From the NCBI RefSeq assembly GCF_003935375.1, contig NZ_RHQM01000019.1:1-64000 (forward strand): a DNA stretch of 64,000 bases. Direction: 5' to 3'. The notes under the pieces were generated by a model. It was not told where the DNA came from, made no database searches, and was given only the letters and a program-made list of their open reading frames with translations. The position numbers and the translations under genes were made by a program. This document shows, one piece after another, positions 11,296-62,166 of the stretch. The stretch's first letter is position 1; each line of letters starts with the position of its first letter. This stretch comes from Stutzerimonas xanthomarina. Lineage in GTDB: Bacteria > Pseudomonadota > Gammaproteobacteria > Pseudomonadales > Pseudomonadaceae.

Positions 11296-12810
11296 ATGCC
11301 CGAACTCGATGTAAACGAAGTCACCACGCTGCTCGAACAGCCGGCCCAGCGCCGCTTGCCGTTCGCCTTTGCCCGCCGCCACGGCGTGATCCTGCTGGAG
11401 CGTGGCGGCGAGCTGCGCCTCGGCCTGCGCGAGGGCGCCGCGCTGACGGCGATGCAGGAGGCGCAGCGGGTCGTTGGTATGCGTCTGCCGATGCAATGGC
11501 TAGCGCAGGCTGATTTCGATCAGGCGCTCGGTGCCGCCTACCAGCACGATTCCTCGGCGGCGATGTTGATGGTCGAGGGGCTGGGCAACGACCTCGACCT
11601 GGCCAGCCTGGCCGACCAGATCCAGGAAACCGAGGACCTGCTGGAGCAGGAGGACGACGCGCCGATCATCCGCCTGATCAACGCCATCCTCGGCGAGGCG
11701 ATTGCCGAGAACGCCTCCGATATCCATATCGAAACCTTCGAGAAGCGCCTGGTGATCCGCTTTCGCGTCGACGGCATCCTCCGCGAAGTGGTGCAGCCCA
11801 AGCGCGAGCTGGCGGCGCTGCTGGTATCGCGGATCAAGGTCATGGCCAAGCTGGATATCGCCGAGAAGCGCATTCCGCAGGACGGGCGCATCTCGCTGCG
11901 GGTCGGCGGGCGTGAGGTCGACATCCGTGTCTCCACGCTGCCCTCGGCCAATGGCGAGCGGGTGGTGTTGCGTCTCCTGGACAAGCAGGCCGGGCGCCTG
12001 ACCCTGCGTCACCTGGGCATGAACGAGCAGGACCGCGACCACCTGGAACAGGCGGTGAAGAAGCCCCACGGCATCATTCTGGTCACCGGCCCCACCGGGT
12101 CGGGCAAGACCACCACGCTCTACGCCGCGCTGACCACGTTGAATGACCGCACGCGCAACATCCTCACCGTCGAGGACCCCATCGAGTACCACCTCGAAGG
12201 CATCGGCCAGACCCAGGTCAACACCAAGGTCGACATGACCTTCGCCCGCGGCCTGCGCGCCATCCTGCGCCAGGACCCGGACGTGGTGATGGTCGGCGAG
12301 ATCCGCGACCAGGAAACCGCCGACATGGCGGTGCAGGCCTCGCTCACCGGCCACCTGGTGCTTTCCACGCTGCACACCAACAGCGCCATCGGCGCCGTCA
12401 CGCGGCTGGTGGACATGGGCGTCGAGCCGTTCCTGATCTCCTCCTCGCTGCTCGGCGTACTGGCCCAGCGCCTCGTGCGGGTGTTGTGCAATGACTGCAA
12501 GCGCGCCTACGTTGCCGATGCCGCCGAGTGCGAGCTGCTCGGGGCCAGCCTGGCCGAGGCGCCGACGCTGTATCACGCCGAAGGCTGCGAGCAGTGCCGG
12601 GGCCTCGGTTACCGCGGGCGTACCGGCATCTATGAGCTTGTGCTGTTCGACGACGCCCTGCGCACCATGGTGCACACCCGCGCCAGCGAGCAGGACATGC
12701 TGCGCCATGCCCGTGAGCTGGGCCCGAGCATCCGCGAGGACGGGCTGCGCAAGGTGCGCGAGGGGGTGACCACCATCGAGGAAGTGCTGAGGGTGACGCG
12801 TGAGGAGTGA
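11296..12810 (+). CDS. gspE: Type II secretion ATPase GspE (XcpR)
   Basis: The 504-residue cytoplasmic ATPase powers pseudopilus assembly for type II secretion. The Walker A motif [10 protein letters not shown] is near residue 265, followed by the Asp box (T-V-E-D-P-I-E-Y-H), Walker B ([12 protein letters not shown]) and His box (S-T-L-H-T-N). A zinc-binding tetracysteine site (C-x-x-C ... C-x-x-C) lies near residues 397-434. The N-terminus ([13 protein letters not shown]) resembles XcpR-type GspE. It is the first gene of an E-F-G-H-I-J-K-L-M operon in the same order as xcpR-Z. Confidence 0.95.
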
Positions 12811-12960
12811 GGGGATGAGGTTGATTCCGACGCGCCCGCAGAGGCATCCGCAGCCTGACCGACATCGCATGGTGGTGCCATTCGCGGCTGCTCCCTCGGC
12901 TGTCCGGTGTCTGTGTAGCGGCGCTCTCGACCGCGGATCGCCGCTGTTGGAGACCGCCTG

Positions 12961-14175
12961 ATGGCCGCCTTCGAATACCTCGCCCTCGACCCGCGTGGCC
13001 GCGAGCAGAAGGGGCTGATCGAAGCCGACAGCCCGCGTCAGGCGCGGCAGTTGCTGCGCGAGAAGCAGTGGGCGCCGCTGGAGGTGAAGCAGGCCAAGTC
13101 CAAGGAAGACGTCAGCCGCGGCGGCCTTAGTTTCGGTCGTGGCTTGTCGGCGCGGGATCTGGCGTTGGTCACCCGGCAGCTGGCGACGCTGGTGCAGGCC
13201 GCGCTGCCGATCGAGGAGGCCCTGCGCGCAGCAGCGGCGCAGTCCACCTCGGCGAAGATCAAGTCGATGCTGCTGGCCGTGCGTGCGCGAGTGATGGAAG
13301 GCCACAGCCTGGCCGCGGCGCTGCGCGAATATCCGTCGGCCTTTCCCGAACTCTACCGCGCCACCGTGGCGGCCGGCGAACATGCCGGCCATCTCGGGCT
13401 GGTGCTCGACCAGCTGGCCGACTACACCGACCAGCGTCAGCAGTCGCGGCAGAAAATTCAGCTGGCGCTGCTCTATCCGGTGATCCTGATGGTCGCCTCG
13501 CTGGCCATCGTCGTGCTGCTGCTCGGCTATGTGGTGCCGGACGTGGTCAAGGTATTCGTCAACACCGGCCAGGAACTGCCGGCGCTGACCCGCGGGCTGA
13601 TCGCCACCAGCGACGTGGTGAAGAACTGGGGCTGGCTGATCGTGCTCGGCATTATCGCCGCCTTGCTGGCCATGCGCGCGGCATTGCGCGACCCGGCGCT
13701 GCGCCTGCGCTGGCATGCGTTCATTCTGCGGATACCGCTGATCGGTCGACTGAGTCGGGCGACCAATACGGCGCGCTTCGCCTCAACCCTGGCGATCCTC
13801 ACCAAGAGCGGCGTGCCGCTGGTGGAGGCGCTGTCCATCGCCGCCGCGGTGATCGCCAACCTGCGCATCCGCGAGCGGGTGGTGGAGGCGGCGCAGAAAG
13901 TGCGCGAAGGCAGCAGCCTGACCCGCGCGCTGGATGCCACCGGCGAATTCCCGCCGATGATGCTGCACATGATCGCCAGCGGCGAGAAATCCGGTGAACT
14001 GGATCAGATGCTGGCGCGAACCGCGCGCAATCAGGAGAACGACCTGGCCGCTCAGGTGTCTCTGCTGGTCGGCCTGTTCGAACCGTTCATGCTGGTGTTC
14101 ATGGGGGCTGTGGTGCTGGTCATCGTGCTGGCGATCCTGATGCCAATCCTCTCTCTCAACCAACTGGTGGGGTAA
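12961..14175 (+). CDS. gspF: Type II secretion inner-membrane protein GspF (XcpS)
   Basis: The 404-residue protein has two repeated T2SSF cytoplasmic domains and three membrane segments (about residues 167-190, 220-240 and 375-398). MAAFEYLALDPRGREQKG is the typical GspF N-terminus. It forms the inner-membrane platform with GspE, L and M. A 150-base gap separates it from gspE, unusual in an operon whose other genes touch or overlap. Confidence 0.95.
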   Translation: MAAFEYLALDPRGREQKGLIEADSPRQARQLLREKQWAPLEVKQAKSKEDVSRGGLSFGRGLSARDLALVTRQLATLVQAALPIEEALRAAAAQSTSAKIKSMLLAVRARVMEGHSLAAALREYPSAFPELYRATVAAGEHAGHLGLVLDQLADYTDQRQQSRQKIQLALLYPVILMVASLAIVVLLLGYVVPDVVKVFVNTGQELPALTRGLIATSDVVKNWGWLIVLGIIAALLAMRAALRDPALRLRWHAFILRIPLIGRLSRATNTARFASTLAILTKSGVPLVEALSIAAAVIANLRIRERVVEAAQKVREGSSLTRALDATGEFPPMMLHMIASGEKSGELDQMLARTARNQENDLAAQVSLLVGLFEPFMLVFMGAVVLVIVLAILMPILSLNQLVG

Positions 14176-14180
14176 CGACA

Positions 14181-14615
14181 ATGAAGTTGCAACGACGCAC
14201 GCAAGGGGGCTTCACCCTCATCGAAATCATGGTGGTGGTGGTCATCCTCGGCATCCTCGCCGCGCTAGTGGTGCCGCAGGTGATGAGCCGCCCGGATCAG
14301 GCCAAGGTCACCGTGGCCAAGGGCGACATCAAGGCCGTCGCCGCCGCGCTGGACATGTACAAGCTGGACAATTTCGCCTACCCGAGCACCCAGCAGGGGC
14401 TGGAGGCGCTGGTGAAGAAGCCTTCCGGCAACCCGCAGCCGAAGAACTGGAACCGCGACGGTTACCTCAAGCGCCTGCCCAAGGACCCGTGGGGCAACGA
14501 CTACCAGTACCTCTCGCCAGGCACCCAGGGCCAGTTCGACCTCTACTCCTTCGGCGCCGACGGCAAGCCCGGCGGCAGCGACCTCAACGCCGACATCGGT
14601 AACTGGGACCTCTAA
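14181..14615 (+). CDS. gspG: Major pseudopilin GspG (XcpT)
   Basis: The 144-residue protein has a type IV prepilin leader ending in Gly before F-T-L-I-E-I-M-V-V, with Glu at mature position 5. The C-terminal half has the GspG signature (L-K-R-L-P-K-D-P-W-G-N-D-Y-Q-Y) and the calcium-binding loop region S-F-G-A-D-G-K-P-G-G. It is processed by the prepilin peptidase (PilD/GspO), which is not in this window. Confidence 0.96.
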   Translation: MKLQRRTQGGFTLIEIMVVVVILGILAALVVPQVMSRPDQAKVTVAKGDIKAVAAALDMYKLDNFAYPSTQQGLEALVKKPSGNPQPKNWNRDGYLKRLPKDPWGNDYQYLSPGTQGQFDLYSFGADGKPGGSDLNADIGNWDL

Positions 14616-14618
14616 TCG

Positions 14619-15188
14619 ATGCGGAAGCGCGCCCGCGCCTTCACGCTGATCGAACTGCTGGTGGTGATCGTCCTGCTGGGCATTCTGGTCAGCGTGGCGG
14701 TGCTCAGCGTCGGCGGTTCGAGCACCTCGCGCGAGCTGCGTGACGAGGCGCGGCGACTGGCTGCGCTGATCGGCGTGCTCAGCGACGAGGCGGTACTCGA
14801 CAGTCGCGAATACGGTCTGCTGGTCAACAGCGAGGGCTATCGCGTACTGCGTTACGACGAAGCTGCCACGCGCTGGCTGGAAGTCGAACGGCGCAAGGTG
14901 CACAAGGTCCCGGACTGGATGCGCCTGGATCTGGAACTGGACGGCACGCCGCTGGAACTGGTGGCCCCAACCCAGCGCGAGGACGACCGTGCCGGGCTGT
15001 CGAGCGAAGGTGAGCGAACCGAACGTCGTGCGCCGCGGCTGGAGCCCCAGTTGCTGATTCTTTCCAGCGGCGAGCTGTCGCCGTTCAGCCTGCGCCTGTC
15101 CGAACGCAAGCCGCGCGGCGGTGGCTGGCTGGTCACCAGCGACGGCTTCCGTCTGCCTGAGGCAAAAGTCATCGAGGACAGGCGATGA
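14619..15188 (+). CDS. gspH: Minor pseudopilin GspH (XcpU)
   Basis: The 189-residue protein has a prepilin leader (R-A-F-T-L-I-E-L-L-V-V-I-V) cleaved before Phe and a soluble C-terminal GspH domain. It starts three bases after gspG, and its stop overlaps the gspI start. Ala instead of Gly at position -1 of the cleavage site is noteworthy, because the peptidase normally requires Gly. Confidence 0.92.
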   Translation: MRKRARAFTLIELLVVIVLLGILVSVAVLSVGGSSTSRELRDEARRLAALIGVLSDEAVLDSREYGLLVNSEGYRVLRYDEAATRWLEVERRKVHKVPDWMRLDLELDGTPLELVAPTQREDDRAGLSSEGERTERRAPRLEPQLLILSSGELSPFSLRLSERKPRGGGWLVTSDGFRLPEAKVIEDRR

Positions 15189-15604
15189 GCGGGCGCTCGG
15201 CCAGGGCCGGCCGCGGTTTCACCCTGCTGGAAGTGCTGGTGGCACTGGCGATTTTCGCCAGCGTGTCGGCCGTGGTGCTCACCGCGGCCGGGCGTAGCCT
15301 GACCAACGCCGGGCGGCTGGAGGAACTGACCCTGGCCGGCTGGATCGCCGACAACCGCATCAGCGAACTGCAGTTGCAGCAGACCCCACCTGCCATCGGC
15401 CGCGAAACCCAGGCGCTGGAGTACGGCAGCCGCCAGTGGCAAACGCTCAGCGAAATCGAGGCCAGCGCCGATCCGGGCCTGCTGCGGGTGACCGTCTGGG
15501 TTGCGCTGCAGACATCGCGTGGCCGCAGCGATCCGGTGCCCGACCGCGCGGTCACCAGCCTCACCGGATTCATCGGTGTCGGCCCGGGAGCCGCGCGCCA
15601 ATGA
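15185..15604 (+). CDS. gspI: Minor pseudopilin GspI (XcpV)
   Basis: The 139-residue protein has a prepilin leader with G-F-T-L-L-E-V-L-V-A-L-A-I-F. The I-A-D-N-R-I-S-E-L-Q-L region is typical of GspI, which forms the pseudopilus tip with J and K. The ATGA overlap with gspH and four-base overlap with gspJ show tight translational coupling. Confidence 0.94.
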   Translation: MSGRSARAGRGFTLLEVLVALAIFASVSAVVLTAAGRSLTNAGRLEELTLAGWIADNRISELQLQQTPPAIGRETQALEYGSRQWQTLSEIEASADPGLLRVTVWVALQTSRGRSDPVPDRAVTSLTGFIGVGPGAARQ

Positions 15605-16314
15605 ACGCTCACGCGCGCACCAGCGCCGGTTTCACCCTGCTCGAGCTGTTGATTGCCATCGCCCTGTTCGCGCTGCTTGGCCTCGGCACCTATCGCATGC
15701 TCGAAGCGGTGCTGCAAAGCGATGAGGCGGTGCGTGCCCAGGAGCTGCAGCTGCGCGAGCTGAGCCGCGCGGTGTGGGCCTTCGAACGTGACCTGCAGCA
15801 GGTGATCGGGCGGCCGATCCGTGATGAGTTCGGCGACGAGCGCAATGCCTTCATCGGTCAGCTCGATGGCGAAGACGGCGCGCCGGTGCTGGAGCTGACC
15901 CGTGCCGGCTGGCGCAATCCCACCGGGCTGCGCCGCGCCAATCTGCAGCGGGTGCGCTGGCGCCTGGCTGGCGACAACCTCGAGCGCGTCTACTGGGTGG
16001 TGCTGGACCGTGACCTCGACAGCGAGCCGCGCGTACAGCGGGTACTGGAAGACGTGCAGGGCCTGCAATTGCGCTACCAGGACGAGGAGGCGGTGTGGCA
16101 CGAGGAGTGGCCGCCGTTCGATTTCGGTCGCGGCAGCCCGGAGAACGCCGCCGAGCGCCTGCCGATCGCCCTGGAGCTGAATATCGAGCACGCCCGCTAC
16201 GGCCGTATCACCCGTCTGCTGCGCCTGCCCGACGCCGTCGAGCAGGCGACGCAGCAGGCGCTTCCCGGCGCCGAGGGCGTGCCCGAGCCGTTCGAAGGGG
16301 AGCTGCCGCAATGA
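15601..16314 (+). CDS. gspJ: Minor pseudopilin GspJ (XcpW)
   Basis: The 237-residue protein starts MNAHARTSAGFTLLELLIAIALFALLG when read from ATG 15601, which overlaps the gspI stop. The upstream open frame is discarded because it has no prepilin leader. The soluble domain contains W-A-F-E-R-D-L-Q-Q-V, a family hallmark. It is part of the tip complex with GspI and GspK. Confidence 0.94.
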   Translation: MNAHARTSAGFTLLELLIAIALFALLGLGTYRMLEAVLQSDEAVRAQELQLRELSRAVWAFERDLQQVIGRPIRDEFGDERNAFIGQLDGEDGAPVLELTRAGWRNPTGLRRANLQRVRWRLAGDNLERVYWVVLDRDLDSEPRVQRVLEDVQGLQLRYQDEEAVWHEEWPPFDFGRGSPENAAERLPIALELNIEHARYGRITRLLRLPDAVEQATQQALPGAEGVPEPFEGELPQ

Positions 16315-17291
16315 AGCACCAGCGCGGCGTAGCCCTGATCACCGTGCTGCTGGTGGTGGCCATCGTCACCGTGGTCAGCGCGGCAATGGTGGCGCGTCAG
16401 CAGCTCAGCATTCGTGCCAGCAGCAACCAGCTGCAGGCACGTCAGGCCTGGCACTACGCGCTGGGCGGCGAAGCGCTGGCCCAGACCATGCTCGCTCGCG
16501 ATCTGCGGGCTGGCGCGACGGGCGCCAATGGTGAGTCCGCGGCCATCGATCATCTGCTCGAGCCCTGGGCGCAGCCGCTGCCGGCGTTCGAGATCGATCA
16601 GGGCGAGATCCTCGTGCGTATCGAGGATCTCGCCGGACGCTTCAACCTCAACGACCTGCTGCGCGACCAGCAGCCCAACCCCGCCGCGGTCGAACAGTTC
16701 CGCCGGCTGCTGTTGCGCCTGCAGATCAGCGCGCCCTACGCTGAACGCCTGCTGGACTGGCTCGACCCGGACCAGCAACCGAGCGGCGAATATGGCGCCG
16801 AAGACAACGCCTATCTCGCGCTCGATCCGCCATATCGCAACGCCGGACGCCGGCTGCATGACTTGTCCGAACTGCGCCTGCTGCTGGACATGCGCGAAGA
16901 GGACTTCCAGCGCCTAGCACCCTATGTCGCCGCGCTGCCGCCCAACGTGCCGCTTAACGTCAACACGGCAAGCCCGATGGTGCTCTCCAGCCTGAGCGAC
17001 AACCTCAGCCTCGGCGCTGCCGAGTCGCTGGTCGAGCTGCGCCGCGTCGCACCGTTTCGCAACAGCGCAGCGTTTCTCGCGCAGCCGGCCATGGCCGGGA
17101 CTACGTTGCAGGGCACTGCGCTGGCGGTTGGCAGTCAATTCTTTCAGGCCACCAGCGAAGTGCGCCTGGGCGATCGCCGGCTGGCGCTGGTCAGCCTGTT
17201 GCAACGCGAGCAGGACGGCAGCGTGCGCGTGCTCGCGCGAAATCTTGGCCAGCCTGCCCGGTTGGCTCGCTCATCCGATGGAGAACGCTAG
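16311..17291 (+). CDS. gspK: Minor pseudopilin GspK (XcpX)
   Basis: The 326-residue protein starts at ATG 16311, overlapping gspJ. Its leader (Q-R-G-V-A-L-I-T-V-L-L-V-V-A-I) lacks the usual Glu at +5, as expected for the tip pseudopilin GspK. The large C-terminal domain contains N-L-N-D-L and P-L-N-V-N-T-A, typical of the family. It caps the pseudopilus. Confidence 0.94.
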   Translation: MKHQRGVALITVLLVVAIVTVVSAAMVARQQLSIRASSNQLQARQAWHYALGGEALAQTMLARDLRAGATGANGESAAIDHLLEPWAQPLPAFEIDQGEILVRIEDLAGRFNLNDLLRDQQPNPAAVEQFRRLLLRLQISAPYAERLLDWLDPDQQPSGEYGAEDNAYLALDPPYRNAGRRLHDLSELRLLLDMREEDFQRLAPYVAALPPNVPLNVNTASPMVLSSLSDNLSLGAAESLVELRRVAPFRNSAAFLAQPAMAGTTLQGTALAVGSQFFQATSEVRLGDRRLALVSLLQREQDGSVRVLARNLGQPARLARSSDGER

Positions 17292-17294
17292 ATC

Positions 17295-18428
17295 ATGGAT
17301 TGCCTGTTTCTGCCCGCCGACAGCCCTGCCAGGCTCGATGGCGATACGCGTGTCTATTGGCTGCCCAAGGACGGCCCTGGCCGCTGGCAGCCCCTGGCCG
17401 ACTGCAGCGGTGGCAGTGGCGCGATCAGCCTGATTCTGCCGGCCGAAGTCTGCAGCTTTTTCGCCGTCACTCTCCCGACCCGCAAGGCGCGCTGGATGCA
17501 GCAGGCGCTGGCCTACGCCGCCGAGGAGTTGCTTGCCGAAAACGTCGACGATCTGCATCTGGCGCTTGGTGAAACGCTGCCCGATGGCCGCCAGCGCGTC
17601 GTGGCGATCCGTCGCCAGCTGCTGGCCGGCTGGTTGGAGCAGCTGCGCGAGCTGGGGCTGCTGATCGTGGCGATCCACGTCGATGCCGATCTGCTGCCGC
17701 GGGAAGACGCACAGCTGCTGTTCATCGGCGAGCGTGGTTTGCTCGGCGGTGTCGGCGAGACGCGGCTGGCTTTCGCCACTCAGGATTGGCCGCAGCTTTC
17801 CGGCCTTTGCCCAGCGCCCTGGCACGCCCAGGGCAGCGAAAGCGAGCCGCCGCTGGCGCTCGACGGCTATCGGCAAGTGGATGATCCGTATGCCTTTCTC
17901 GTCGCCCAGCGCGCGGCGGCAGTCAATCTGGCTCAGGGCGACTTCGCCGTCGAGGTCGGCAACACCGGCCTCGGCTACTGGAAACCGCTGTTTGCCGTCG
18001 CCGGGCTGATCCTGCTGGTGCAGCTGGGTTTCAATCTAAGCCAGGCCTGGTACTTCCAGCGCCAAGGCGATGCCTATGCCGAGGCCAGTCTGGCGCTGTA
18101 TCGAGAGTTGTTCCCGGAGGACATCCGGATCGTAAACATGCGCGCACAATTCGATGATCACCTGGCGCGCGGCAGCGGCGGGCAGGCGGGCTTCCTGCGC
18201 TTGCTCGACCACGCTGCCGCAGCGCTGGAGGACGGCATTCCGGTCACCATCGGTCAGCTCGACTACAACCAGGATCGTGGCGATCTGGCGCTGCAGGTGC
18301 AGGCGATGGATTTCGCCACCCTGGAAACCCTGCGTCGGCGGCTGGGTGAGGCCGGCCAGAGTGTGCAGTTGGGTTCGGCCAGTCGCGAAGGTGACGGCGT
18401 GAGTGCCCGCGTGGTGATCGGAGGCTGA
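17295..18428 (+). CDS. gspL: Type II secretion protein GspL (XcpY)
   Basis: The 377-residue protein has an actin-like N-terminal cytoplasmic domain (L-F-L-P-A-D, Y-A-A-E-E-L-L-A-E). One membrane helix lies at about residues 232-250 (F-A-V-A-G-L-I-L-L-V-Q-L), with a periplasmic ferredoxin-like domain after it. It anchors GspE to the membrane and partners GspM. The stop overlaps the gspM start. Confidence 0.93.
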   Translation: MDCLFLPADSPARLDGDTRVYWLPKDGPGRWQPLADCSGGSGAISLILPAEVCSFFAVTLPTRKARWMQQALAYAAEELLAENVDDLHLALGETLPDGRQRVVAIRRQLLAGWLEQLRELGLLIVAIHVDADLLPREDAQLLFIGERGLLGGVGETRLAFATQDWPQLSGLCPAPWHAQGSESEPPLALDGYRQVDDPYAFLVAQRAAAVNLAQGDFAVEVGNTGLGYWKPLFAVAGLILLVQLGFNLSQAWYFQRQGDAYAEASLALYRELFPEDIRIVNMRAQFDDHLARGSGGQAGFLRLLDHAAAALEDGIPVTIGQLDYNQDRGDLALQVQAMDFATLETLRRRLGEAGQSVQLGSASREGDGVSARVVIGG

Positions 18429-24477: not shown

Positions 24478-24625
24478 TGCAGCCCGTCGGTAATCGGGCA
24501 ACTCTGGTGCGGCGCTGCTTACTAAAACCCTGACAGCACGCCGCACCGTGACAGAGGAGCAACAGCGAGGCAGCAAAGGAGAATCACCGAGACGGCGTTT
24601 CCGAAACCCGACCAGGAGATTGTCC

Positions 24626-25798
24626 ATGAGAGCCCTCCGCTGGCACGGCAAGCACGATATCCGCTGCGACAACCACGTCCCCGATCCCTCCATCGAAGAC
24701 CCTCGCGACGCCATCATCAAGGTGTCGTCCTGCGCCATCTGCGGCTCCGACCTGCACCTGTACGACGGCTTCATGCCCGGCATGCAGCACGGCGACATCA
24801 TGGGCCACGAGTTCATGGGCGAGGTGATGGAGGTCGGCTCGGCGAACAAGAAGCTCAAGGTGGGCGACCGCGTGGTGGTGCCCTTCACCATTGTCTGCGG
24901 CGAGTGCGACCAGTGCCGGCGCGGCAATTTCTCGGTGTGCGAGCGCACCAACCGCAACAAGGACGTGGCTGACAAAGTCTTTGGCCACACCACCGCCGGC
25001 CTCTATGGCTATACCCACCTCACCGGCGGTTATGCCGGTGGTCAGGCCGAGTACGTCCGCGTGCCCTACGCCGATGTCGGTCCCGTGGTGATCCCCAATG
25101 GTCTGACTGACGAGCAGGTATTGTTCCTCGGCGACATTCTCCCCACCGGCTGGCAGGCCGCGGCGCAATGCGACATCCAGCCCACCGACACCGTGGCAGT
25201 CTGGGGTGCCGGGCCGGTCGGCCAGTTCGCCGTCCGCAGCGCGGTGATGATGGGCGCCGAGCAGGTCATCTGTATCGACAACGTGCCCGAGCGGCTGTCC
25301 ATGGCCCGCGCCGGCGGCGCCATCACCATCAACTTCGATGAAGAAAGCGTGCTCGAACGCCTCAAGGAACTGACCCGTGGCAAGGGCCCGGAGAAATGCA
25401 TCGATTCGGTTGGGATGGAGGCGCACGCGGCGCGTTCGATCGACTCGATGTACGACCGCGCCAAGCAGGCAATGATGCTCGAGAGCGACCGGCCGCACGT
25501 GCTGCGCGAGATGATCTACGTCTGCCGTCCGGCCGGCATCATCTCCATTCCCGGCGTCTACGGCGGGCTGATCGACAAGATTCCGTTTGGCGCGGCGATG
25601 AACAAGGGCCTGACCTTCCGCATGGGGCAGACCCACGTCAATCGCTGGACTGACGATCTGCTGCGGCGCATCCAGGAAGGCGAGATCGACCCGAGCTTCG
25701 TCATCACCCACAGCGTCAGCCTCGAGCAGGGTCCGGAAATGTACAAGACCTTCCGCGACAAGCATGACGGCTGCATCAAGGTCGTTCTCAAACCCTGA
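24626..25798 (+). CDS. Zinc-dependent alcohol dehydrogenase
   Basis: The 390-residue medium-chain dehydrogenase has catalytic zinc ligands ([15 protein letters not shown]), a structural zinc loop ([15 protein letters not shown]) and an NAD motif (W-G-A-G-P-V-G-Q). Its length and long substrate domain resemble glutathione-independent formaldehyde or aldehyde dismutase-type enzymes, but the substrate is inferred only. AGGAG at 24614-24618 fixes the start. It forms an apparent operon with the small membrane protein gene 66 bases downstream. Confidence 0.88.
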
Positions 25799-25864
25799 AG
25801 CCTGCAGATCGCCGATCCCTACGGTAGGGATCGGCCGAGCCAAGCTATCGAGCGAGGAGTCTTT

Positions 25865-26383
25865 ATGAGCATTCCACGTCAAGTTACCCGGCCCAATCAT
25901 TCCGCACGCTCGCTGGCGCGTGGGCTGGGCTGGTTCAGTATCGGCCTGGGCGTCGTCCAGCTGGTGGCACCGCGGCAGGTTGCGCGCTTTATCGGGATGT
26001 CCGGCAGCGAAGGGGTGGTCCGTGCTTGCGGGCTGCGCGAGATCGCCACCGGTGTCGGCATCCTGCTGGCGGATGATCCGAAACCCTGGATCTACGGCCG
26101 TATCGGCGGCGATGCGCTGGATCTGGCCGGTCTCGGCTGGAGCATTGAGCACGGCAACGAGCCGGCCAATGCCGCCATCGCTGCCGGCGCGGTGGCCGGT
26201 ATCACCGCGCTGGACCTGAGCTGCGCCAAGGGTCTGGATGCCGAGCAGGTGCCGGTGGTCGAATGGGACTACAGCGACCGCAGCGGTTTCCCCGGCGGCA
26301 CTGCGCAAATGCGTGGCAGCGTCGAGGCCGAGTTCGCCGCCGCGCGGGCCGAGCCCAACGGCTATTCGCCGTCGCTTCATTGA
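25865..26383 (+). CDS. Small membrane protein linked to alcohol dehydrogenase
   Basis: The 172-residue protein has two or three hydrophobic stretches (L-G-W-F-S-I-G-L-G-V-V-Q-L; I-A-T-G-V-G-I-L-L; A-A-G-A-V-A-G-I-T-A). The N-terminal half looks like the membrane part found in cyclase/dehydrase-like proteins of pseudomonads, without the START-like cyclase domain. Residues 120-172 are soluble and acidic. GAGGAG lies just before the ATG. Its repeated pairing with zinc alcohol dehydrogenases is from general recollection; the function is unknown. Confidence 0.65.
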   Translation: MSIPRQVTRPNHSARSLARGLGWFSIGLGVVQLVAPRQVARFIGMSGSEGVVRACGLREIATGVGILLADDPKPWIYGRIGGDALDLAGLGWSIEHGNEPANAAIAAGAVAGITALDLSCAKGLDAEQVPVVEWDYSDRSGFPGGTAQMRGSVEAEFAAARAEPNGYSPSLH

Positions 26384-26512
26384 GCTGAAACCCAGGATCG
26401 GCTGGGTAGTGCCTGGTCGACTCTGAGCGCGACGATCCGCCGCATTTGCTATGGTGGCCGGCCGTTTTGGTCCAGGCCTCGTGCCGCGCCGCCAGTTTGC
26501 AGATGAGAGTCC

Positions 26513-27445
26513 ATGTCTTCGGTCGTCAATGTCGTCCTGCCCGTCTTTGCGCTGATCCTGCTCGGTTACCTGTGCCGCCGTAGCGGGCGGATGGGGCCAA
26601 CCGGCGCTTCCGAACTCAATCGGTTCGTGGTCTGGCTGGGCCTGCCGGCGCTGCTTTTCAGCGTCGTTGCCACCTCGACCTGGGGGCAGCTCTGGCAACC
26701 CGGCTTTATCGCCGCGTTCGCCATCGGCTGCCTCGGCGTGTTCGCCTTCACTCTTGCGTATCGCATGTTGCAGGAGCAGCCGCTGGTCGACGCCAGCCTG
26801 GACGCGCTGGGTGCGTCCTACGCCAACACCGGCTATGTCGGGATTCCGCTGTGCATGCTGGTGCTGGGCGACGAGGCGCTGCAGCCGGCGATGGTCGCCT
26901 CGATCGTAGTGGTCTGTGTGCTGTTCGCCATCGCCCTGGCCTGCGTCGAGACCGGCCTGCATGCCGGGCAGGGCGTTTTGCGCACGCTGGGCAAAGTCAG
27001 TAGTGCGCTGGTACGCAATCCACTGGTGATCGCGCCGCTGCTCGGTGCGCTGTGGGCGGCGACTAGGCTGCAATTGCCGGTGCCGCTGGCGACATTGCTC
27101 AAGCTGCTGGGCGCGGCGGCGGCGCCCTGCGCACTGGTGTCGCTGGGGCTGTTCCTCGCCCAGCCACAGCCCGGAGGACGGGTGCAGGGGGTGTGGCCGC
27201 TGGTGGGGTTGAAGCTGGTGGTGCAGCCGCTGATTACCTGGTATCTGGCTTTTCAGGTATTCGAGCTGCCAACGCTGTGGGCCTATTCGGCGTTGCTGCT
27301 CGCCGCGCTGCCGACCGGGACTGGCCCCTACATGCTTGCCGAATTCTATGGGCGCGAGGGCTCGCGGGTGTCGCGGGTGGTGCTGCTGTCGACGCTGGGT
27401 TCGCTAATCACTCTGTCACTGATCTTGGTGCTATTGCCGGTCTGA
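26513..27445 (+). CDS. AEC family transporter (auxin efflux carrier-like)
   Basis: The 310-residue inner-membrane protein has about ten helices. The N-terminal V-N-V-V-L-P-V-F-A-L-I-L-L-G-Y and A-S-Y-A-N-T-G-Y-V-G-I-P-L, together with P-T-G-T-G-P-Y-M-L-A near the end, are the standard AEC motifs. AEC transporters move organic anions such as malonate or malate. It stands alone; no substrate can be named. Confidence 0.9.
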   Translation: MSSVVNVVLPVFALILLGYLCRRSGRMGPTGASELNRFVVWLGLPALLFSVVATSTWGQLWQPGFIAAFAIGCLGVFAFTLAYRMLQEQPLVDASLDALGASYANTGYVGIPLCMLVLGDEALQPAMVASIVVVCVLFAIALACVETGLHAGQGVLRTLGKVSSALVRNPLVIAPLLGALWAATRLQLPVPLATLLKLLGAAAAPCALVSLGLFLAQPQPGGRVQGVWPLVGLKLVVQPLITWYLAFQVFELPTLWAYSALLLAALPTGTGPYMLAEFYGREGSRVSRVVLLSTLGSLITLSLILVLLPV

Positions 27446-53981: not shown

Positions 53982-55387
53982 CGGGCCAGCTCCTCTTGCA
54001 GGTGCGCCAGTTGCTGGAGGAAGGCCGGTTCGTCGTCCAGTTGGCGCAGGTCGAGCCAGAGGGCGTCGTCGTCGATGCGCCCGAGCACAGGAATCGGCAG
54101 GCAGCGCAGGGCTTCTTCCAGCTGGCGCAGGCTGCGGCCGCGCAGGCGCTTGGGCTGCTGCGGGCGGATGCACAGCGCTGCGCTGGGTAGGCGTGCCACC
54201 GGCTGCGCGCCGCTGCCGATCATGCCCAGGGCATCGGTTACTGCGACTTGCCAGGTTTCGCCGAGCACGGCCGTCAGCGCCGGCGCGATGCGTTCAGCCT
54301 GGGTACGAATGTCGGCCTGCGGGCGGCTGAGCAGGCGCAGGCTGGTGAGGCGTTCGGCCAGGCGGTCGGGATCGCGATAGAGGTTGAGCACCGCTTCCAG
54401 CGCGGCAAGGGTCAGCTTGTCGACGCGCAGGGCGCGCTTGAGCGGGTTCTTCTTGATCTTCTGGATCAGCGCCTTGCTGCCGACGATCAGCCCGGCCTGC
54501 GGGCCGCCGAGCAGCTTGTCGCCGCTGAAGGTGACGATGTCGGCGCCGTCGCGCAGCGCTTCCTGCACCGTGGGTTCCTTCGGCAGGCCCCAACGAGAGA
54601 GATCGAGCAGGCTGCCGCTGCCGAGGTCTTCCAGCAGCGGCAGATCGTGGGCATGGGCGATGCGCGCCAGTTCGGTGGTGGCGACGCTGGCGGTGAAGCC
54701 CTGCACGCTGTAATTGCTGGTGTGCACACGCATCAACAGGCCCGAGCGCGGGTTGATCGCCGCTTCGTAATCCTTGGCGTGGGTGCGGTTGGTGGTGCCG
54801 ACTTCATGCAGCTTCACGCCGGCGCGGGCCATGATGTCGGGGATGCGGAAGGCACCGCCGATCTCGATCAGCTCGCCGCGGGAAATGATGCCTTCCTTCC
54901 GTGCGCCGAGACTGTTCAAGGCCAGCAGCACGGCGGCGGCGTTGTTGTTGACCACGGTGACGGCCTCGGCGCCGGTCAGTTCGCGGATCAGCCCTTCGAT
55001 GAGGTCGTCGCGGTCGCCGCGCTTGCCAGTGGCGAGATCGAATTCCAGATTGAGCGGGTAACGTGCGGCGAGGGTGATCGCCTCGATGGCTTCATCCGGC
55101 AGCAAGGCGCGGCCGAGATTGGTGTGCAGCACCGTGCCGGTGAGGTTGAACACCCGGCGCACGCGGCTGCGGTGCTGGCTGGCCAGGCGTTCGCCGGCGC
55201 GCCCGGCGAGTACCGCTTCGGACAATTCCAGTGCAGCCAGCTGGCCGTGGCGGGCCGGTTCTCGCAGTTCATCGAGCAGGTCGCGCAGGGTGCTCAGCAA
55301 TGCCTGACGGCCGTAGCGCTGCTGCAGCGGCTGACAGGCTGGGTCGCGCAGCAGCTTGTCGACCGAGGGCAGGTGGCTGCTGCTCAT
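53978..55387 (-). CDS. selA: L-seryl-tRNA(Sec) selenium transferase SelA
   Basis: The 469-residue PLP enzyme converts Ser-tRNA(Sec) to Sec-tRNA(Sec) with selenophosphate. The family N-terminus ([11 protein letters not shown]) and the PLP lysine motif [11 protein letters not shown] near residue 291 are clear, as is [14 protein letters not shown]. The start ATG 55387 overlaps the fdhE stop. Selenophosphate synthetase (selD) is not in this window. Confidence 0.96.
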
Positions 55388-56301
55388 GCATCGCCCCCCG
55401 GTGCCAGCAGCAGGTTGGGGGCCTGGCGCTGAAAGCCCTGCTCGGACAGCAGCATGTCCAGGTCGAGGGTGGCGAGGTCGGCGGAGAGGCTTTCGCCATC
55501 CGGCGCCAGGTCCAGGTAGAGCTGCTTGAGGTAGCCATTGCACTCAGGGCAGACCTCGGCCTTGACGCCTTGCGGCGAGCCTTCGAAGTGCAGGTAGTCG
55601 AGTTTCTTGGTGCTGCGGCAGAGGCTGCATTTGACGCGCACGTAATGCCACTCGCAGGCGCACAGCGAGCAGACCAGATAACGCAAGCCGTTGAGCTGGC
55701 CGCGATGGCGGATGATGCCTGCCATCGGTGGCGCACCGCAGCAGGGGCAGTGGGTCTGGTCTTCGCGCTCGCGCATGTCGGAGAGGTCGAGCTGCAGCAG
55801 CCAGTGGCTCCAGGCCAGCTGCAGGGCGGCGCCGAGGAAGGGCACCAGTGCTGGCGGCAGGCTGTCGTACTGGCCACTGACCAGTGCCACGGCCCATGCC
55901 TTGCGCTGGCCGCTTTCGGCCTCACGCAGTTGCTCGATGGCAGCCACTACCGCGGGGCTTTCCGGCGCCACGAAGGCATCCAGCCAGGCATCCAGCATCG
56001 TCAGCCAGGCATCGTCGCGCACCAGGGTATCGGCAGCCAGCGGCGGCAGGTTGTGCCTGAGACTTTCGCGGGTGCGGTGTTCGTCCAGCGGCACGATTGT
56101 CGGCGGGTTGTCCAGCACCTGCTGTTGCGCCTGGCACATCGCTGCCAGCAGGCGCAGGTAGTCGGCGAACGGATGGCCTTCGGCGAGCCTGGTCAGGCGC
56201 TCGCTGCGCAGGGCGAACAGGTTGCGCGGTGGCAGGTTGAGGAAGGGTGGTTTGCTGGCAGCGGCTTCGATCTGCCCGGGTTCGAGAATGGTGCCTGCCA
56301 C
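55384..56301 (-). CDS. fdhE: Formate dehydrogenase accessory protein FdhE
   Basis: The 305-residue cytoplasmic protein has four C-x-x-C pairs (C-P-C-C, C-S-L-C, C-S-L-C, C-P-E-C) in its middle and C-terminal region, as in FdhE, which binds metal and helps assemble formate dehydrogenases. The start GTG 56301 is preferred because AAGGAG lies six bases upstream and [10 protein letters not shown] matches the family start. It lies between fdnI and selA. Confidence 0.94.
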
Positions 56302-56383
56302 GCAGGACTCCTTATTCTTGGGGTTGTGCCGAACAGCATAGTCCGTCACTGGCTGTCGCTCGGCTTTCGATGATGCGCGAGGT

Positions 56384-56432: not shown

Positions 56433-57056
56433 TTATTTGCGCTCGGTGATCTCCCGATACCAGGCCGGATGGTGCTTGCGCGCCCAGGCTCGGCTGACAG
56501 TGCCGTAGAGCATGGCGCCCATCGAGCCCTTGAGCCAGATGGCGGCGTAAATGTGCACGATGATGCTGACGATCAGCACAAAGGCGGCGATGGCATGCAG
56601 CAGGCTTGCCCAGCGCAGCGAGACGATGCCGAAGAAGCTGCTGAAGTACTCGCGCCAGATGACGATGCCGCTGAGCAGCAACACCAGCATGCTGACGATC
56701 AGCACCCAGAACAGCACCTTTTGCCCGGCGTTGTAGCGGCCGACTTCCGGCAGTTTTTCCTCGCGGTTGTGCACCACGTCGTTGATCTGCCTGAGCCACT
56801 GGCGGTCGCGTGCTTCGATGCGGTTATGCCCGGCGAAGCGGATCGCCAGCCAGAGGAAGAAGACGAACATCGCGACCCCGATGAAGGGGTGCAGGATGCG
56901 CGTCCAGGTGCCGCCGCCGAACAGCCCGGAGAGGCCGAACAGCGCCGGATGGAACAGCGCCAGGCCGGACAGCGCGGCGAGTACGAAGAGGATGGCAACG
57001 ATCCAGTGATTGGTCCGCTGCGAGGGGTTGTAGCGTTCGATGTCGTTGTTATTCAT
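56433..57056 (-). CDS. fdnI: Formate dehydrogenase cytochrome b subunit FdnI
   Basis: The 207-residue protein has four membrane helices (I-V-A-I-L-F-V-L-A-A-L-S-G-L-A; V-A-M-F-V-F-F-L-W-L; L-I-V-S-M-L-V-L-L-L-S-G-I-V-I-W; and A-A-F-V-L-I-V-S-I-I-V-H-I-Y). Haem-ligating histidines are expected in N-H-W and in helix 4. It passes electrons from the beta subunit to quinone. It is 58 bases downstream of fdnH. Confidence 0.93.
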   Translation of the reverse strand: MNNNDIERYNPSQRTNHWIVAILFVLAALSGLALFHPALFGLSGLFGGGTWTRILHPFIGVAMFVFFLWLAIRFAGHNRIEARDRQWLRQINDVVHNREEKLPEVGRYNAGQKVLFWVLIVSMLVLLLSGIVIWREYFSSFFGIVSLRWASLLHAIAAFVLIVSIIVHIYAAIWLKGSMGAMLYGTVSRAWARKHHPAWYREITERK

Positions 57057-57113: not shown

Positions 57114-58055
57114 TCAGGGTCGCGGCTCCTTGGGGTCGACCACATGCACCGAAGGATCGACCTGGTGCACCACGGACTCGCTGAGTTCGGCCTTGTCGTC
57201 CTCTTCCTCGACGCGAATAGGACCCACCCGCGTGTAGTGGAAGAACCCGGCCAGCACCGCCGCGCCCATGCCCAGCAGAGCGAGGGGCTTGGTCACGCCT
57301 TTCCACAGGCCGACCAGTGGGCTGATGGTCGGCTCGTTCGGCAGGTCGTTGTACAGCGAGGGCTGATCGGCATGGTGCAGCACGTACATCACGTGCGTAC
57401 CGCCGACGCCATCGGGGTCGTACAGGCCGGCCTGGTCGAAACCGCGTTCCTTCAGATCGGCGATACGCCCGGCCGCGTGATCCTTCATGTCCTCCTTGCT
57501 GCCGAAGACGATGGCTCCGGTGGGGCAGGTCTTCACGCAGGCCGGCTCGAGCCCGACCGACACGCGGTCGGAACAGAGCGTGCACTTGTAGGCCTTCTTG
57601 TCCTTCTCGGAGATACGCGGGATGTCGAACGGGCAACCGGTGATGCAGTAGCCGCAGCCGATGCAGTGGTCCTGGTTGAAGTCGACGATGCCGTTGGCGT
57701 ACTTCACGATGGCCCCCGGCGCCGGGCAGGCCTTGAGGCAGCCAGGGTCGGCGCAGTGCATGCAGCCGTCCTTGCGGATCAGCCACTCGAGGTTGCCGCT
57801 GCCGGGGTTCTCGTACTCGGCGAACTTCATCACCGTCCAGGATTCGGCGGTGAGGTCGATCGGGTTGTCGTAGGTCCCGTTGCTGGTGCCGACTTCATCA
57901 CGCAGGTCGTTCCATTCCGAACACGCCACCTGGCAGGCCTTGCAGCCGATGCACTTGGAGACGTCGATCAGTTTCGCCACCTCGCCGATCTCGCGGATCG
58001 ACGGCCGCTCGGTGGTCGTGGCGGAGCGGGCAATCACGTCTTGAGTAGCCATCAT
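57114..58055 (-). CDS. fdnH: Formate dehydrogenase iron-sulfur subunit FdnH
   Basis: The 313-residue protein has four 4Fe-4S clusters' worth of cysteines ([42 protein letters not shown]) and a C-terminal membrane helix ([14 protein letters not shown]). It carries electrons from FdnG to FdnI across the periplasmic face. Its start overlaps the fdnG stop. Confidence 0.95.
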
Positions 58056-61000
58056 GCCTTCTCCACGTTGACCAGGAACGACTTGAACTCCGGCGTCTGG
58101 GTGTTGGCGTCACCGACGAACGGCGTTAGCGTGTTGGTCAGGTAACCGTTGCGCGCCACCCCGGCGAAGCCCCAGTGCAGCGGGATGCCGATGTGATGAA
58201 CGGTCTGGCCGTCCACCGTCAGCGGCTTGATGCGCTTGGTCACCACCGCCACCGCCTTGATGTAGCCGCGGTTGGACGACACCTTGACCCGCTCGCCGGC
58301 CTTGATGCCCAGCTCGTTGGCCAGCACCTCGCCGATCTCGACGAACTGCTCGGGCTGGGTGATCGCGTTGAGCCGGCAATGTTTGGTCCAGAAGTGGAAG
58401 TGCTCCGTCAGCCGGTAGGTGGTGGCCGCGTAGGGGAAGTCCTCCGCGGTGCCGAACAGCTCCATGTCGTTCTTGAACACCCGCGCGGCCGGATTGCTGA
58501 TGGCCTGGACGTTATCCGGGTGCATGGGATTGCGGCCGATGGGCGTCTCGAACGGCTCGTAATGCTCGGGGAATGGCCCCTCGTTCATCTTGTCCACGGC
58601 GAACAGCCGCGCCACCCCTTCGGGGTTCATGATGAACGGGTTCATGCCTTCCTCTGGGCGCGAGTCGACCTTGAAGTCCGGCACGTCGGTGCCGCCCCAC
58701 TTGGTGCCGTCCCACCAGACCAGGCGTTTCTTCTGCGGGTCCCACGGGTCGCCGGCCGGGTCGGCCGAAGCGCGGTTGTAGAGGATGCGCCGGTTGGCTG
58801 GCCAGGCCCATGCCCAGCCCAGCGTCTGGCCCATGCCGTAGGGGTCGGCATTGTCGCGTCGGGCCATCTGGTTGCCGGCCTGGGTCCAGGAGCCACACCA
58901 GATCCAGCAGCCGCTGGAGGTGGTGCCGTCGGCACGCAGCAGACCGAAGCCTGGCAGCAGCTCGCCGGCCTTGGCCACCTGCGCTCCGGTCTGCAGGTCG
59001 AACACATCGCTCAGGGCCTTTCCGTTGTACTCCTGGGCGATTTCCTCGGCGGTCGGTTCTTCCGGCTGGCGATAGCCCCAGTCGATGTTGAGCAGCGGCT
59101 CGGCGTAGGCGCCGCCTTCCTTGCGATACAGCTCGCGCAGGCGATGGAACAGCCCTCCCATGATCACCACGTCGGTCTGCGCCTGGCCCGGCGGCTCGGC
59201 GGCCTTCCAGTGCCATTGCAGCCAGCGGCCGCTGTTGACCAGCGAGCCGTCCTCCTCGGCGAAGCAGGTGGTCGGCAGGCGGAACACCGTGGTCTGGATG
59301 CTGGCGGTGTCGACGTCGTTGTACTCGCCGGCGTTGCGCCAGAACTCCGAGGTCTCGGTGGCCAGCGGGTCCATGATCACCAGGTACTTGAGCTTGGCTA
59401 GCGCGGCGCTGACCTTGGCCTTGTTGGGGAACGAGGCGATGGGGTTGAAGCCCTGGCAGAAATAGCCGTTGACCTGCCCCTGGTACATCATGTCGAACAC
59501 CTTGAGCACGTCGTAGCCGGGGATATCCAGCTTCGGCAGCCAGTCGTAGCCCCAGTTGTTCTCCGCCGTGGCGTTCTTGCCGTACCAGGCCTTCATCAGG
59601 CTGACGTGGAATTTCTCGTAGTGCTGCCAGTAGGACAGCTGCCCCGGGCGCAGCGGCTTGGCGGTGCGCTTGGCGATGTAGGCCGCATAGTCCTGCTCGG
59701 CTTCCAGCGGCAGTGTCATGTAGCCCGGCAGCAGGTTGGAGAGCAGGCCGAGATCGGTCAGGCCCTGGATATTGGAGTGCCCGCGCAGCGCATTCATGCC
59801 GCCGCCGGGCATGCCGATGTTGCCGAGCAGCAGCTGCACCATGGCGCCGGTGCGGATCATCTGCGAACCGGTCGAATGCTGCGTCCAGCCCAGGGCGTAC
59901 ATGATGGTCATGACCTTGCCCGGTGCCGAGGTTTCGGCGATGGTCTCCCACACCTGCAGCATCTTGTCCTGCGGTGTGCCGCAGATGTTGCTGACCAGTT
60001 CCGGCGTGTAACGGCTGTAGTGCTGCTTGAGCAGATTAAACACGCAGCGCGGGTGGGTGAGGCTCTTGTCGACGCGGGCGAAGCCTTCTTCGTCCAGCTC
60101 GTAGCTCCAGCTGGCCTTGTCCGTATAGGTACGCCGATCGCCGTCGTAGCCGTTGAACAGACCGTTCTCGAAGCCGAAGCCTTCCTTCACGATGAACGAG
60201 ACGTCGGTGTAGTTGACCACGTATTCGTGCTGGATCTTGTCGTTTTCCAGCAGGTAGTTGATCAGCCCGCCGAGGAAGGCGATGTCGGTGCCGGTGCGGA
60301 TCGGCGCATACATGTCGGCCACCGAGGCCGAACGGGTGAAGCGCGGATCGACCACCACCAGCCGCGCCTTGTTGCGCGCCTTGGCCTCGGTGACCCATTT
60401 GAAGCCGCACGGGTGCGCTTCGGCGGCGTTACCGCCCATGATCAGGACCAGGTCAGCGTTCTGGATATCGGACCAGTGATTGGTCATGGCTCCACGGCCA
60501 AACGTCGGGGCAAGACTTGCCACCGTCGGGCCATGTCAGACACGTGCCTGGTTATCGAATCCCAGAATGCCGAGTGAACGAACCACCTTGTGGGTGATGT
60601 AACCCGCCTCGTTGGATGATGCCGAGGCGGCGAGGAAACCGGTGCTCAGCCAGCGGTTGACCGTCTGACCCTCTTCGTTGCGTTCGACGAAGTTGGCGTC
60701 GCGGTCGTCCTTCATCAGCCGGGCGATGCGGTCGAGGGCGTCGCTCCACTCGATGCGCTTCCACTCGTTGCTGCCGGCTTCGCGGACTTCCGGGTGGGTC
60801 AGGCGGTTGGGGCTATGGACGAAGTCGAGCAGGCCGGCGCCTTTCGGGCACAGGGTGCCGCGGTTGACCGGGTGATCGGAGTCGCCTTCGATGTGGATGA
60901 TGTTCTGCGCAACGTTTTTGCCGCCGCTGCCCTGGCTGTAGATGATCAGCCCGCAACCGACGGAGCAGTAGGGACAGGTGTTGCGAGTTTCGCGCGTGTT

Positions 61001-61126
61001 GGTCAGTTTGAAATGCCGGATCGACTCGGCATACGCCGTCGGTGGGGCCATACCCAATGCCGCCATGCTCGACGCCCCAAGGCCCACACCGCAGACCTTG
61101 AAGAACTGTCGACGGTTCATATCCAT
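58052..61126 (-). CDS. fdnG: Selenocysteine-containing formate dehydrogenase-N/O alpha subunit
   Basis: Two frames join across an in-frame TGA (60538-60536) into a 1024-residue protein in which residue 197 is selenocysteine. The context ([20 protein letters not shown]) matches E. coli FdnG/FdoG. The N-terminus has a Tat signal (N-R-R-Q-F-F-K), and Cys51, 54, 58 and 93 bind a 4Fe-4S cluster. Molybdenum bis-MGD domains follow. It oxidises formate in the periplasm as part of the FdnGHI complex. Annotating the TGA as a stop would wrongly split the gene. Confidence 0.97.
60503..60538 (-). promoter_or_regulatory. SECIS hairpin after the fdnG UGA
   Basis: In the mRNA, downstream of the UGA, GG-U-GGCA-AGUCU-UGCC-CC forms an upper stem with a bulged U and a five-base loop. 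This is the minimal SelB-binding form known from E. coli fdnG and fdhF. GGCC tracts on both sides extend the lower stem. The stem runs within coding sequence. Confidence 0.93.
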
Positions 61127-61276: not shown

Positions 61277-62113
61277 TCAGGCACCGGCGGCCATGGCCAG
61301 CTGCTTTTTCCACTCCCGCGGCGAATGCCCGGCGTGCGCCTTGAACGCCCGGGAGAACGCGGCTTCGCTGCCGTAGCCCACTTCGAACGCGATCATCTTG
61401 ATCGGCCGTCCGCGACGCAGGGCCTTCTGCGCCAGGCGGACGCGCCAGCCCTGCAGATACTGGCCCGGCGTAGTGCCGACGGTCTCGCGGAAGGCCGTGG
61501 CGAACACGCTGCGGGACATCCCGGCAACGCTGGCCAGCTCCTCGAGCGTCCAGTCCTGCGCCGGCGCCTCGTGCATCGCCACCAGAGCATTGCGCAGGCG
61601 CGGGTGCGCAAGCCCGGAGAGCAACCCGCCATTCACCTCGTCGCTTTCCATCAGCTGGCGCAGGACCTGGATCATCACCACTTCGAGCAACCGCTCGACC
61701 AATGCCACGCGCCCGCAGCGTTGCTCGAAGGCCTCCTCGAACAGCAGCGAGAGGATCGGCTCGGCGCCCCAGACCTGATCCAGCGGCAGGCAGACGACAT
61801 CGGCCAGCGCCGAGGCGATCGGGTTGCTGGTGCCGCCTTCGAACGACAGGTTTGCGCAGACCATGTCGGCGTTCTGCCCGGGGGCGATGATGAAACGGTG
61901 CGTCAGCGGGCGCGGAAACAGCAGCAGGCTCGGTCGCTCGACCTGCAGCGACTCCCTGCCATAGCGCACCTCCAGCGTGCCGCTGCGCACCAGATGCAGC
62001 TGCCCGTGCACGCCATCGCTTTGCAGCGTGTTGATGCCGCACAGGGGGCCGGTATTGAACACCTGTGCGCTCATCGGGAAGTGGGTCATCAGCGCAGCGA
62101 GCCGGTCGGCCAT
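61277..62113 (-). CDS. AraC family transcriptional regulator
   Basis: The 278-residue protein has an N-terminal cupin_6-type domain (L-F-P-R-P-L-T-H-R-F) and a C-terminal AraC domain with M-S-R-S-V-F-A-T-A-F and V-G-Y-G-S-E-A-A-F-S-R-A-F. The start at ATG 62113 has AGGAG seven bases upstream. It is divergent from ohr and may regulate ohr and the following hydrolase gene, or formate metabolism; no proof exists. Confidence 0.87.
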   Translation of the reverse strand: MADRLAALMTHFPMSAQVFNTGPLCGINTLQSDGVHGQLHLVRSGTLEVRYGRESLQVERPSLLLFPRPLTHRFIIAPGQNADMVCANLSFEGGTSNPIASALADVVCLPLDQVWGAEPILSLLFEEAFEQRCGRVALVERLLEVVMIQVLRQLMESDEVNGGLLSGLAHPRLRNALVAMHEAPAQDWTLEELASVAGMSRSVFATAFRETVGTTPGQYLQGWRVRLAQKALRRGRPIKMIAFEVGYGSEAAFSRAFKAHAGHSPREWKKQLAMAAGA

Positions 62114-62166
62114 CTTCGTACTCCTGATCATGTTTTCCGGATTCTACGTCACCAATAGTTTTTTCT

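What the first reader, a model, noticed from the sequence alone, without database searches (positions are those of the whole stretch)
58052..61126. Formate dehydrogenase alpha is a selenoprotein read through an in-frame UGA
The reading frame continues across the TGA at 60538-60536 with the same flanking residues (R-V-U-H-G-P-T) as E. coli FdnG. A bulged-U SECIS hairpin follows directly. Automatic annotation would call two genes or a pseudogene. The translation and hairpin are seen in the sequence; Sec insertion follows from known biology.
Basis: partly seen in the sequence, partly recalled or inferred. Interest (0 to 1): 0.75.

Follow-up and report, generated by a model that had tools for sequence, protein, structure and literature searches.

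The report
Ordinary selenocysteine-containing formate dehydrogenase gene
This is the well-known bacterial enzyme formate dehydrogenase N, whose gene reads one internal stop codon as the rare amino acid selenocysteine; the helper genes sit close by, and the same arrangement was already described in print for this group of bacteria.

Summary
On the minus strand an fdnG gene (61126-58052) is interrupted at codon 197 by TGA (60538-60536), and a SECIS hairpin (Rfam SECIS_3, 82.2 bits, cut-off 63) covers 60541-60483. The joined 1,024-residue protein matches E. coli FdnG end to end (1kqf) and NCBIfam TIGR01553 (1485.8 bits, cut-off 814.2). Downstream on the same strand lie fdnH, fdnI, fdhE, selA, selB and the selenocysteine tRNA gene. 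selD, apparently a cysteine form, is elsewhere in the assembly. Of 111 loci read at codon level (30 from the family search with the window's own, 80 named, 1 E. coli; 97 distinct genes without E. coli), 111 have TGA there. In the hairpin 11 of 13 testable codons have invariant third bases, against 173 of 690 elsewhere. The UGA is thus very probably decoded as selenocysteine; protein evidence is missing. The aside that automatic annotation splits the gene at the UGA did not hold in the three records opened. The arrangement was published in 2006 (PMC1794560). Ordinary and already known.

The parts
58052..61126 (-). fdnG: formate dehydrogenase-N alpha subunit, 1,024 aa with selenocysteine at residue 197; begins [10 protein letters not shown], a twin-arginine-type signal (motif recognised from memory)
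   Evidence: TIGR01553 1485.8 bits, cut-off 814.2; 1kqf_A over residues 1-1024
60536..60538 (-). in-frame TGA read as selenocysteine (codon 197)
   Evidence: aligned with the X of E. coli FdnG 1kqf; TGA in 111 of 111 loci read
60483..60541 (-). bacterial SECIS element (Rfam RF01989 SECIS_3), bulged U at 60522
   Evidence: U present in 38 of 38 distinct hairpins
57114..58055 (-). fdnH: iron-sulfur beta subunit; its ATG overlaps the fdnG stop
   Evidence: TIGR01582 461.7 bits, cut-off 334.7
56433..57056 (-). fdnI: cytochrome b gamma subunit
   Evidence: TIGR01583 200.9 bits, cut-off 115.85; the narrower models NF007924 and NF007558 match below their cut-offs (232.8 of 341, 216.4 of 339)
55384..56349 (-). 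fdhE: formate dehydrogenase accessory protein (GTG start, or GTG at codon 17)
   Evidence: TIGR01562 347 bits, cut-off 187.65; the narrower NF002925 is below its cut-off (215.1 of 426); start codons
53978..55387 (-). selA: L-seryl-tRNA(Sec) selenium transferase; probable ATG at codon 53 of the listed frame, overlapping the fdhE stop
   Evidence: TIGR00474 604.5 bits, cut-off 267.9; start codons
52065..53981 (-). selB: selenocysteine-specific elongation factor with C-terminal winged helices; probable TTG start overlapping the selA stop
   Evidence: TIGR00475 469.4 bits, cut-off 242.25, match from residue 65 of the listed frame; Pfam SelB winged-helix domains; start codons
51935..52026 (-). selC: selenocysteine tRNA, anticodon TCA
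   Evidence: RF01852 79.6 bits, cut-off 47; ARAGORN; the only match over the cut-off among 150 scored of 672 candidates in the genome

Best explanation
This is a respiratory formate dehydrogenase-N gene set (fdnGHI plus fdhE) followed by the selenocysteine decoding genes selA, selB and selC in a Stutzerimonas-type bacterium. SelB carries Sec-tRNA to the ribosome, binds the SECIS hairpin directly after the UGA and makes the ribosome insert selenocysteine at residue 197, which would serve as the active-site ligand of the molybdenum or tungsten cofactor, as in E. coli FdnG. Gene content, hairpin and conservation are shown here; insertion, cofactor ligation and export are inferred from known biology.
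For: The joined protein matches E. coli FdnG over its whole length with the TGA opposite the X of the solved chain and exceeds the TIGR01553 cut-off. SECIS_3 matches over the full model with a bulged U. selA, selB and tRNA-Sec follow on the same strand; selD is over its cut-off elsewhere in the assembly. TGA at the site in 111 of 111 loci read: 30 of 30 from the family search including the window's own, 80 of 80 named genome-contig loci and 1 of 1 E. coli gene, with 97 distinct genes in the first two sets, the window's included. All 150 match rows shown of the 298-genome search have one internal stop, a TGA; further matches were not listed. Third-base variation is lowest at codons 196-210 of 691 sliding windows.
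Against: No protein or ribosome-profiling data were available. The hairpin is not fully paired in all relatives: among 38 distinct hairpins pair 8-48 is A-C in 9 and A-A in 4, pair 16-41 is A-A in 16, and pairs 11-45 and 12-44 fail in 1 each. Covariation is thin: pair 21-33 goes from G-C to A-U in 2 of 38, and pair 15-42 is G-U, G-C or A-U (28, 9, 1). The low third-base variation is not unique to the hairpin: the window at codons 1011-1023 is nearly as low (0.019 against 0.013). 128 of 298 family genomes gave no match at E 1e-200, so the gene is not universal.
Confidence: 0.98

Rival explanations
1. The TGA is a nonsense mutation or sequencing error in a decayed gene that originally had Cys.
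For: Under the standard code the frame is split in two.
Against: TGA at the same place in 111 of 111 loci read, each open for at least 190 codons before and 790 after it; SECIS directly after it; selA, selB, selC and selD present.
Confidence: 0.01
2. Translation stops at the UGA and the second frame (GTG at 60523) is translated on its own.
For: An in-frame GTG starts 12 bases after the TGA.
Against: The two halves together match one FdnG chain without a break, with the TGA at its X residue; the hairpin across the junction matches a known SECIS family and its third bases vary little.
Confidence: 0.01

Closest known systems
E. coli formate dehydrogenase N alpha subunit FdnG (PDB 1kqf/1kqg), and the fdnG-named gene before fdoH in E. 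coli PCN033 (L132)
   Same: Full-length collinear match to 1kqf with the X at the TGA site; in L132 the TGA and a hairpin with the bulged U in the same place.
   Different: Here fdhE, selA, selB and selC follow fdnGHI; in the E. coli record fdhD lies before the gene and fdoH after it. That the E. coli sel genes lie elsewhere is recalled, not tested.
selA-selB-selC operon with neighbouring fdhA of Pseudomonadales (Genome Biol. 2006, PMC1794560)
   Same: Same gene set and neighbourhood; fdhA described as the only selenoprotein in Pseudomonadales; selD and ybbB paired in an operon (passages seen), as here.
   Different: No difference was seen in the passages read; the paper's figures and data files were not seen.

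Membership tests
Formate dehydrogenase-N alpha subunit (FdnG, TIGR01553) | Score over the curated cut-off along the whole model | tested here: met
   1485.8 bits against 814.2, model 2-1009 of 1009
Formate dehydrogenase-N alpha subunit (FdnG, TIGR01553) | Neighbouring iron-sulfur beta and cytochrome b gamma subunits | tested here: met
   TIGR01582 and TIGR01583 over cut-off; the narrower gamma models NF007558 and NF007924 below theirs
Bacterial selenoprotein gene | In-frame UGA at a conserved active-site position | tested here: met
   111 of 111 loci
Bacterial selenoprotein gene | SECIS hairpin directly 3' of the UGA | tested here: met
   RF01989 82.2 bits, cut-off 63; fold z -3.06
Bacterial selenoprotein gene | selA, selB, selC and selD in the genome | tested here: met
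Bacterial selenoprotein gene | Selenium present in the protein | not testable with these tools
   needs mass spectrometry or 75Se labelling

The most novel reading that the evidence does not exclude
The most that the evidence leaves open is a compact fdnGHI-fdhE-selABC unit that holds the only SECIS_3 element found in the genome next to its decoding machinery, a self-contained package suited to transfer between genomes; even this was proposed in 2006 (PMC1794560, passages). A 75%-identical fdnG on a conjugative Pseudomonas putida plasmid shows that relatives of the gene do sit on mobile DNA; whether sel genes lie with it was not looked at.
Probability: 0.5. Interest if true: 0.12.

Novelty: already known. 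Interest (0 to 1): 0.06.

Why it matters
It matters mainly for annotation: the gene must be kept as one 1,024-residue selenoprotein. It adds one more case of the known link between fdnG and the selenocysteine decoding genes, and the third-base conservation is consistent with selection on the hairpin as RNA.

Tried and rejected
A Cys-containing FdnG copy in the same genome was sought: 8 other matches, 28-42% identical over part of the length, in frames without internal stop. Three were scanned: L003 is NapA-like (832.8 bits for the 436 residues given, cut-off 904); L002 scores best with TIGR01591 but below its cut-off (561.1 of 666.25; its frame runs off the locus) and follows a frame that I take by eye for a nitrite or sulfite reductase; L004 is an unresolved molybdopterin enzyme of which 244 residues were given. 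L005 and L006 are further pieces of the L002 gene by position; L007 to L009 were not scanned.

Nonsense mutation, sequencing error and true termination were considered and rejected on the conservation of TGA plus hairpin. Viral carriage: one scan of viral contigs gave no relative. Plasmid relatives exist: 1,315 records with a match, 148 with at least 80% of the query covered in one place.

Calls that led nowhere: the first script did not turn the loci to the gene's strand and crashed (redone, where 29 of 30 genes entered the third-base test because L048 is three bases shorter). The motif missed L070 (H-A-P-T instead of H-G-P-T; TGA shown), so its pair counts leave out L070 and the loci. A recount with a looser motif at first hit a chance site in L078, which printed one ATA and one C in place of the bulged U; one search resolved this with frame checks, and the counts in this report are those. 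A pattern search for other SECIS-like sites had its spacer two bases off, hit the true site only with 3 mismatches, and gave 48 sites against 34 for the reversed control; it says nothing. One search translated a small frame beside selC out of frame and was not pursued.

Papers: the searches (1 paper; 5 papers) gave none that I saw to measure selenium in this protein in Stutzerimonas or P. stutzeri. I saw passages of PMC8538045 (it assays E. coli formate dehydrogenase), PMC1794560 and PMC5029168; of the rest, among them the other papers in the list (15 of 21 listed), only the listing. No supplement or figure was seen.

Full report
What is in the sequence. The minus strand from 61126 to 58052 holds one long frame broken only by TGA at 60538-60536. 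Read with TGA as selenocysteine it gives 1,024 residues, Sec at 197, in the context DNQARV-U-HGPTVAS. The final codon is also TGA (58054-58052); no SECIS match at gathering score follows it, and the ATG of the next gene overlaps it.

Identity. NCBIfam TIGR01553, formate dehydrogenase-N subunit alpha, scores 1485.8 bits against a cut-off of 814.2 over model positions 2-1009 of 1009. In the PDB the best of 53 distinct sequences matched is E. coli nitrate-inducible formate dehydrogenase (1kqf) over residues 1-1024 with 1572.6 bits, and the TGA residue falls on its X (that X stands for selenocysteine is recalled). Chains named selenocysteine-containing formate dehydrogenase alpha subunit follow at 869-877 bits.

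The hairpin. Rfam SECIS_3 matches 60541-60483 over all 59 model positions (82.2 bits, cut-off 63). The fold of 60541-60490 has -23.9 kcal/mol against a shuffled mean of -16.1 (z -3.06; 0 of 200 shuffles as stable) and leaves U at hairpin position 20 (60522) unpaired between two stems. Counted from the U of the UGA this is base 17, the place of the bulged U in E. coli SECIS elements (the E. coli numbering is recalled). The U is present in 38 of 38 distinct hairpins.

Conservation. In 298 genomes of the family, 170 have a match at E up to 1e-200 and 128 have none; 150 match rows are shown and 150 of 150 have exactly one internal stop, a TGA; further matches were not listed. The loci handed out for the best 30, the window's own included, were read at codon level: 30 of 30 have TGA at codon 197 and no other internal stop. 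Of the 80 genome-contig loci, 80 have TGA at the site; one of them, L070, has H-A-P-T in place of H-G-P-T. The E. coli PCN033 gene has TGA too. The two sets of relatives overlap: together they hold 97 distinct genes, the window's included, judged by the part from the hairpin to the stop. No Cys codon was seen at this site in what was read.

Selection on the RNA. Among 29 genes of equal length, 703 codons have an invariant degenerate amino acid. Of the 13 such codons at 198-211, 11 have an invariant third base, against 173 of 690 elsewhere; mean minor-base frequency 0.032 against 0.127 (Mann-Whitney p = 0.0002). Of 691 overlapping windows of 13 such codons the lowest is 196-210 (0.013), but 1011-1023 is close (0.019), and 288-306 and 5-20 are also low (0.029). 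Neighbouring codons are not independent and the genes are related, so the p value is only indicative. Among 38 distinct hairpins pair 21-33 changes from G-C to A-U in 2, pair 15-42 is G-U, G-C or A-U, while pair 8-48 is not a standard pair in 13 and pair 16-41 in 16.

Surroundings. On the same strand follow fdnH, fdnI, fdhE, selA, selB and tRNA-Sec with anticodon TCA. Stops and starts overlap at fdnG/fdnH, and at fdhE/selA and selA/selB if the starts shown are right, which suggests one transcript; this was not tested. The tRNA is the only one over the tRNA-Sec cut-off in the genome, 150 of 672 candidates being scored (over the cut-off in 5 of 14 control genomes). selD lies on another contig, over its cut-off (449 bits against 125; over the cut-off in 2 of 14 controls), without an internal stop, with C-G-C in its N-terminal region, next to an mnmH (ybbB) gene. 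That this Cys stands where selenocysteine occurs in other SelD proteins is recalled. Two fdhD genes are present. The SECIS_3 element is the only one reported in the genome, 150 of 2,225 candidates being scored. This agrees with FdnG being its only selenoprotein of this type; other SECIS types were searched only in the window, by Rfam.

Place of the organism. The closest named matches are Stutzerimonas chloritidismutans AW-1 (100% protein identity as printed), S. kunmingensis (98-99%) and S. stutzeri BAL361 (99%). The window thus most likely comes from that group; this is an inference from one protein.

What is known. PMC1794560 (passages seen) describes for Pseudomonadales the selA-selB-selC operon with fdhA next to it, fdhA as the only selenoprotein, and selD with ybbB in an operon, and proposes that the decoding genes and fdhA came by horizontal transfer. 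A later survey, PMC5029168 (passages seen), lists Pseudomonas stutzeri A1501 as donor of the selenocysteine trait to a Marinobacter. The case here fits that description.

Annotation. Three records were opened. E. coli PCN033 and a Pseudomonas putida plasmid have one CDS across the site. E. coli 98198 has fdnG in two incomplete pieces, broken at about codon 940, far from the UGA. In the 20 plasmid rows shown, 9 name fdnG under the match and 11 list no gene; that table is incomplete by its own description, so the 11 do not tell.

Verdict. The observation and the interpretation are both right; the feature is ordinary and already known.

Noticed in passing
G148, G152, G172, G183, G189, G217 and G088 (same genus), second matches: These relatives carry a second fdnG-like gene, about 65% identical to this one, also with a single internal TGA; the window's genome has one match at that threshold.
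   Followed up: no
L142 (NZ_CP142112.1, Pseudomonas putida WBC-3 plasmid unnamed2): A 75%-identical fdnG with fdxH on a 46-kb plasmid typed as conjugative.
   Followed up: partly
G000:C22:32381-33082 and G000:C9:13391-14092: Two fdhD genes in the genome, both over the family cut-off; the one on C9 lies beside a frame with weak similarity to FdnG at 14590-15402.
   Followed up: no
window 11296-18428, plus strand: Type II secretion genes: an E-type ATPase, F, K and L proteins by Pfam.
   Followed up: no
window 24584-27073, minus strand: An 829-aa frame without a Pfam match at 1e-5; it may not be a real gene, since long chance frames are common in this G+C-rich DNA.
   Followed up: no
window 61277-62131, minus strand: An AraC-type regulator (cupin plus helix-turn-helix; best named model RclR, 105.5 bits, below its cut-off of 400) lies 150 bases upstream of fdnG on the same strand.
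   Followed up: no
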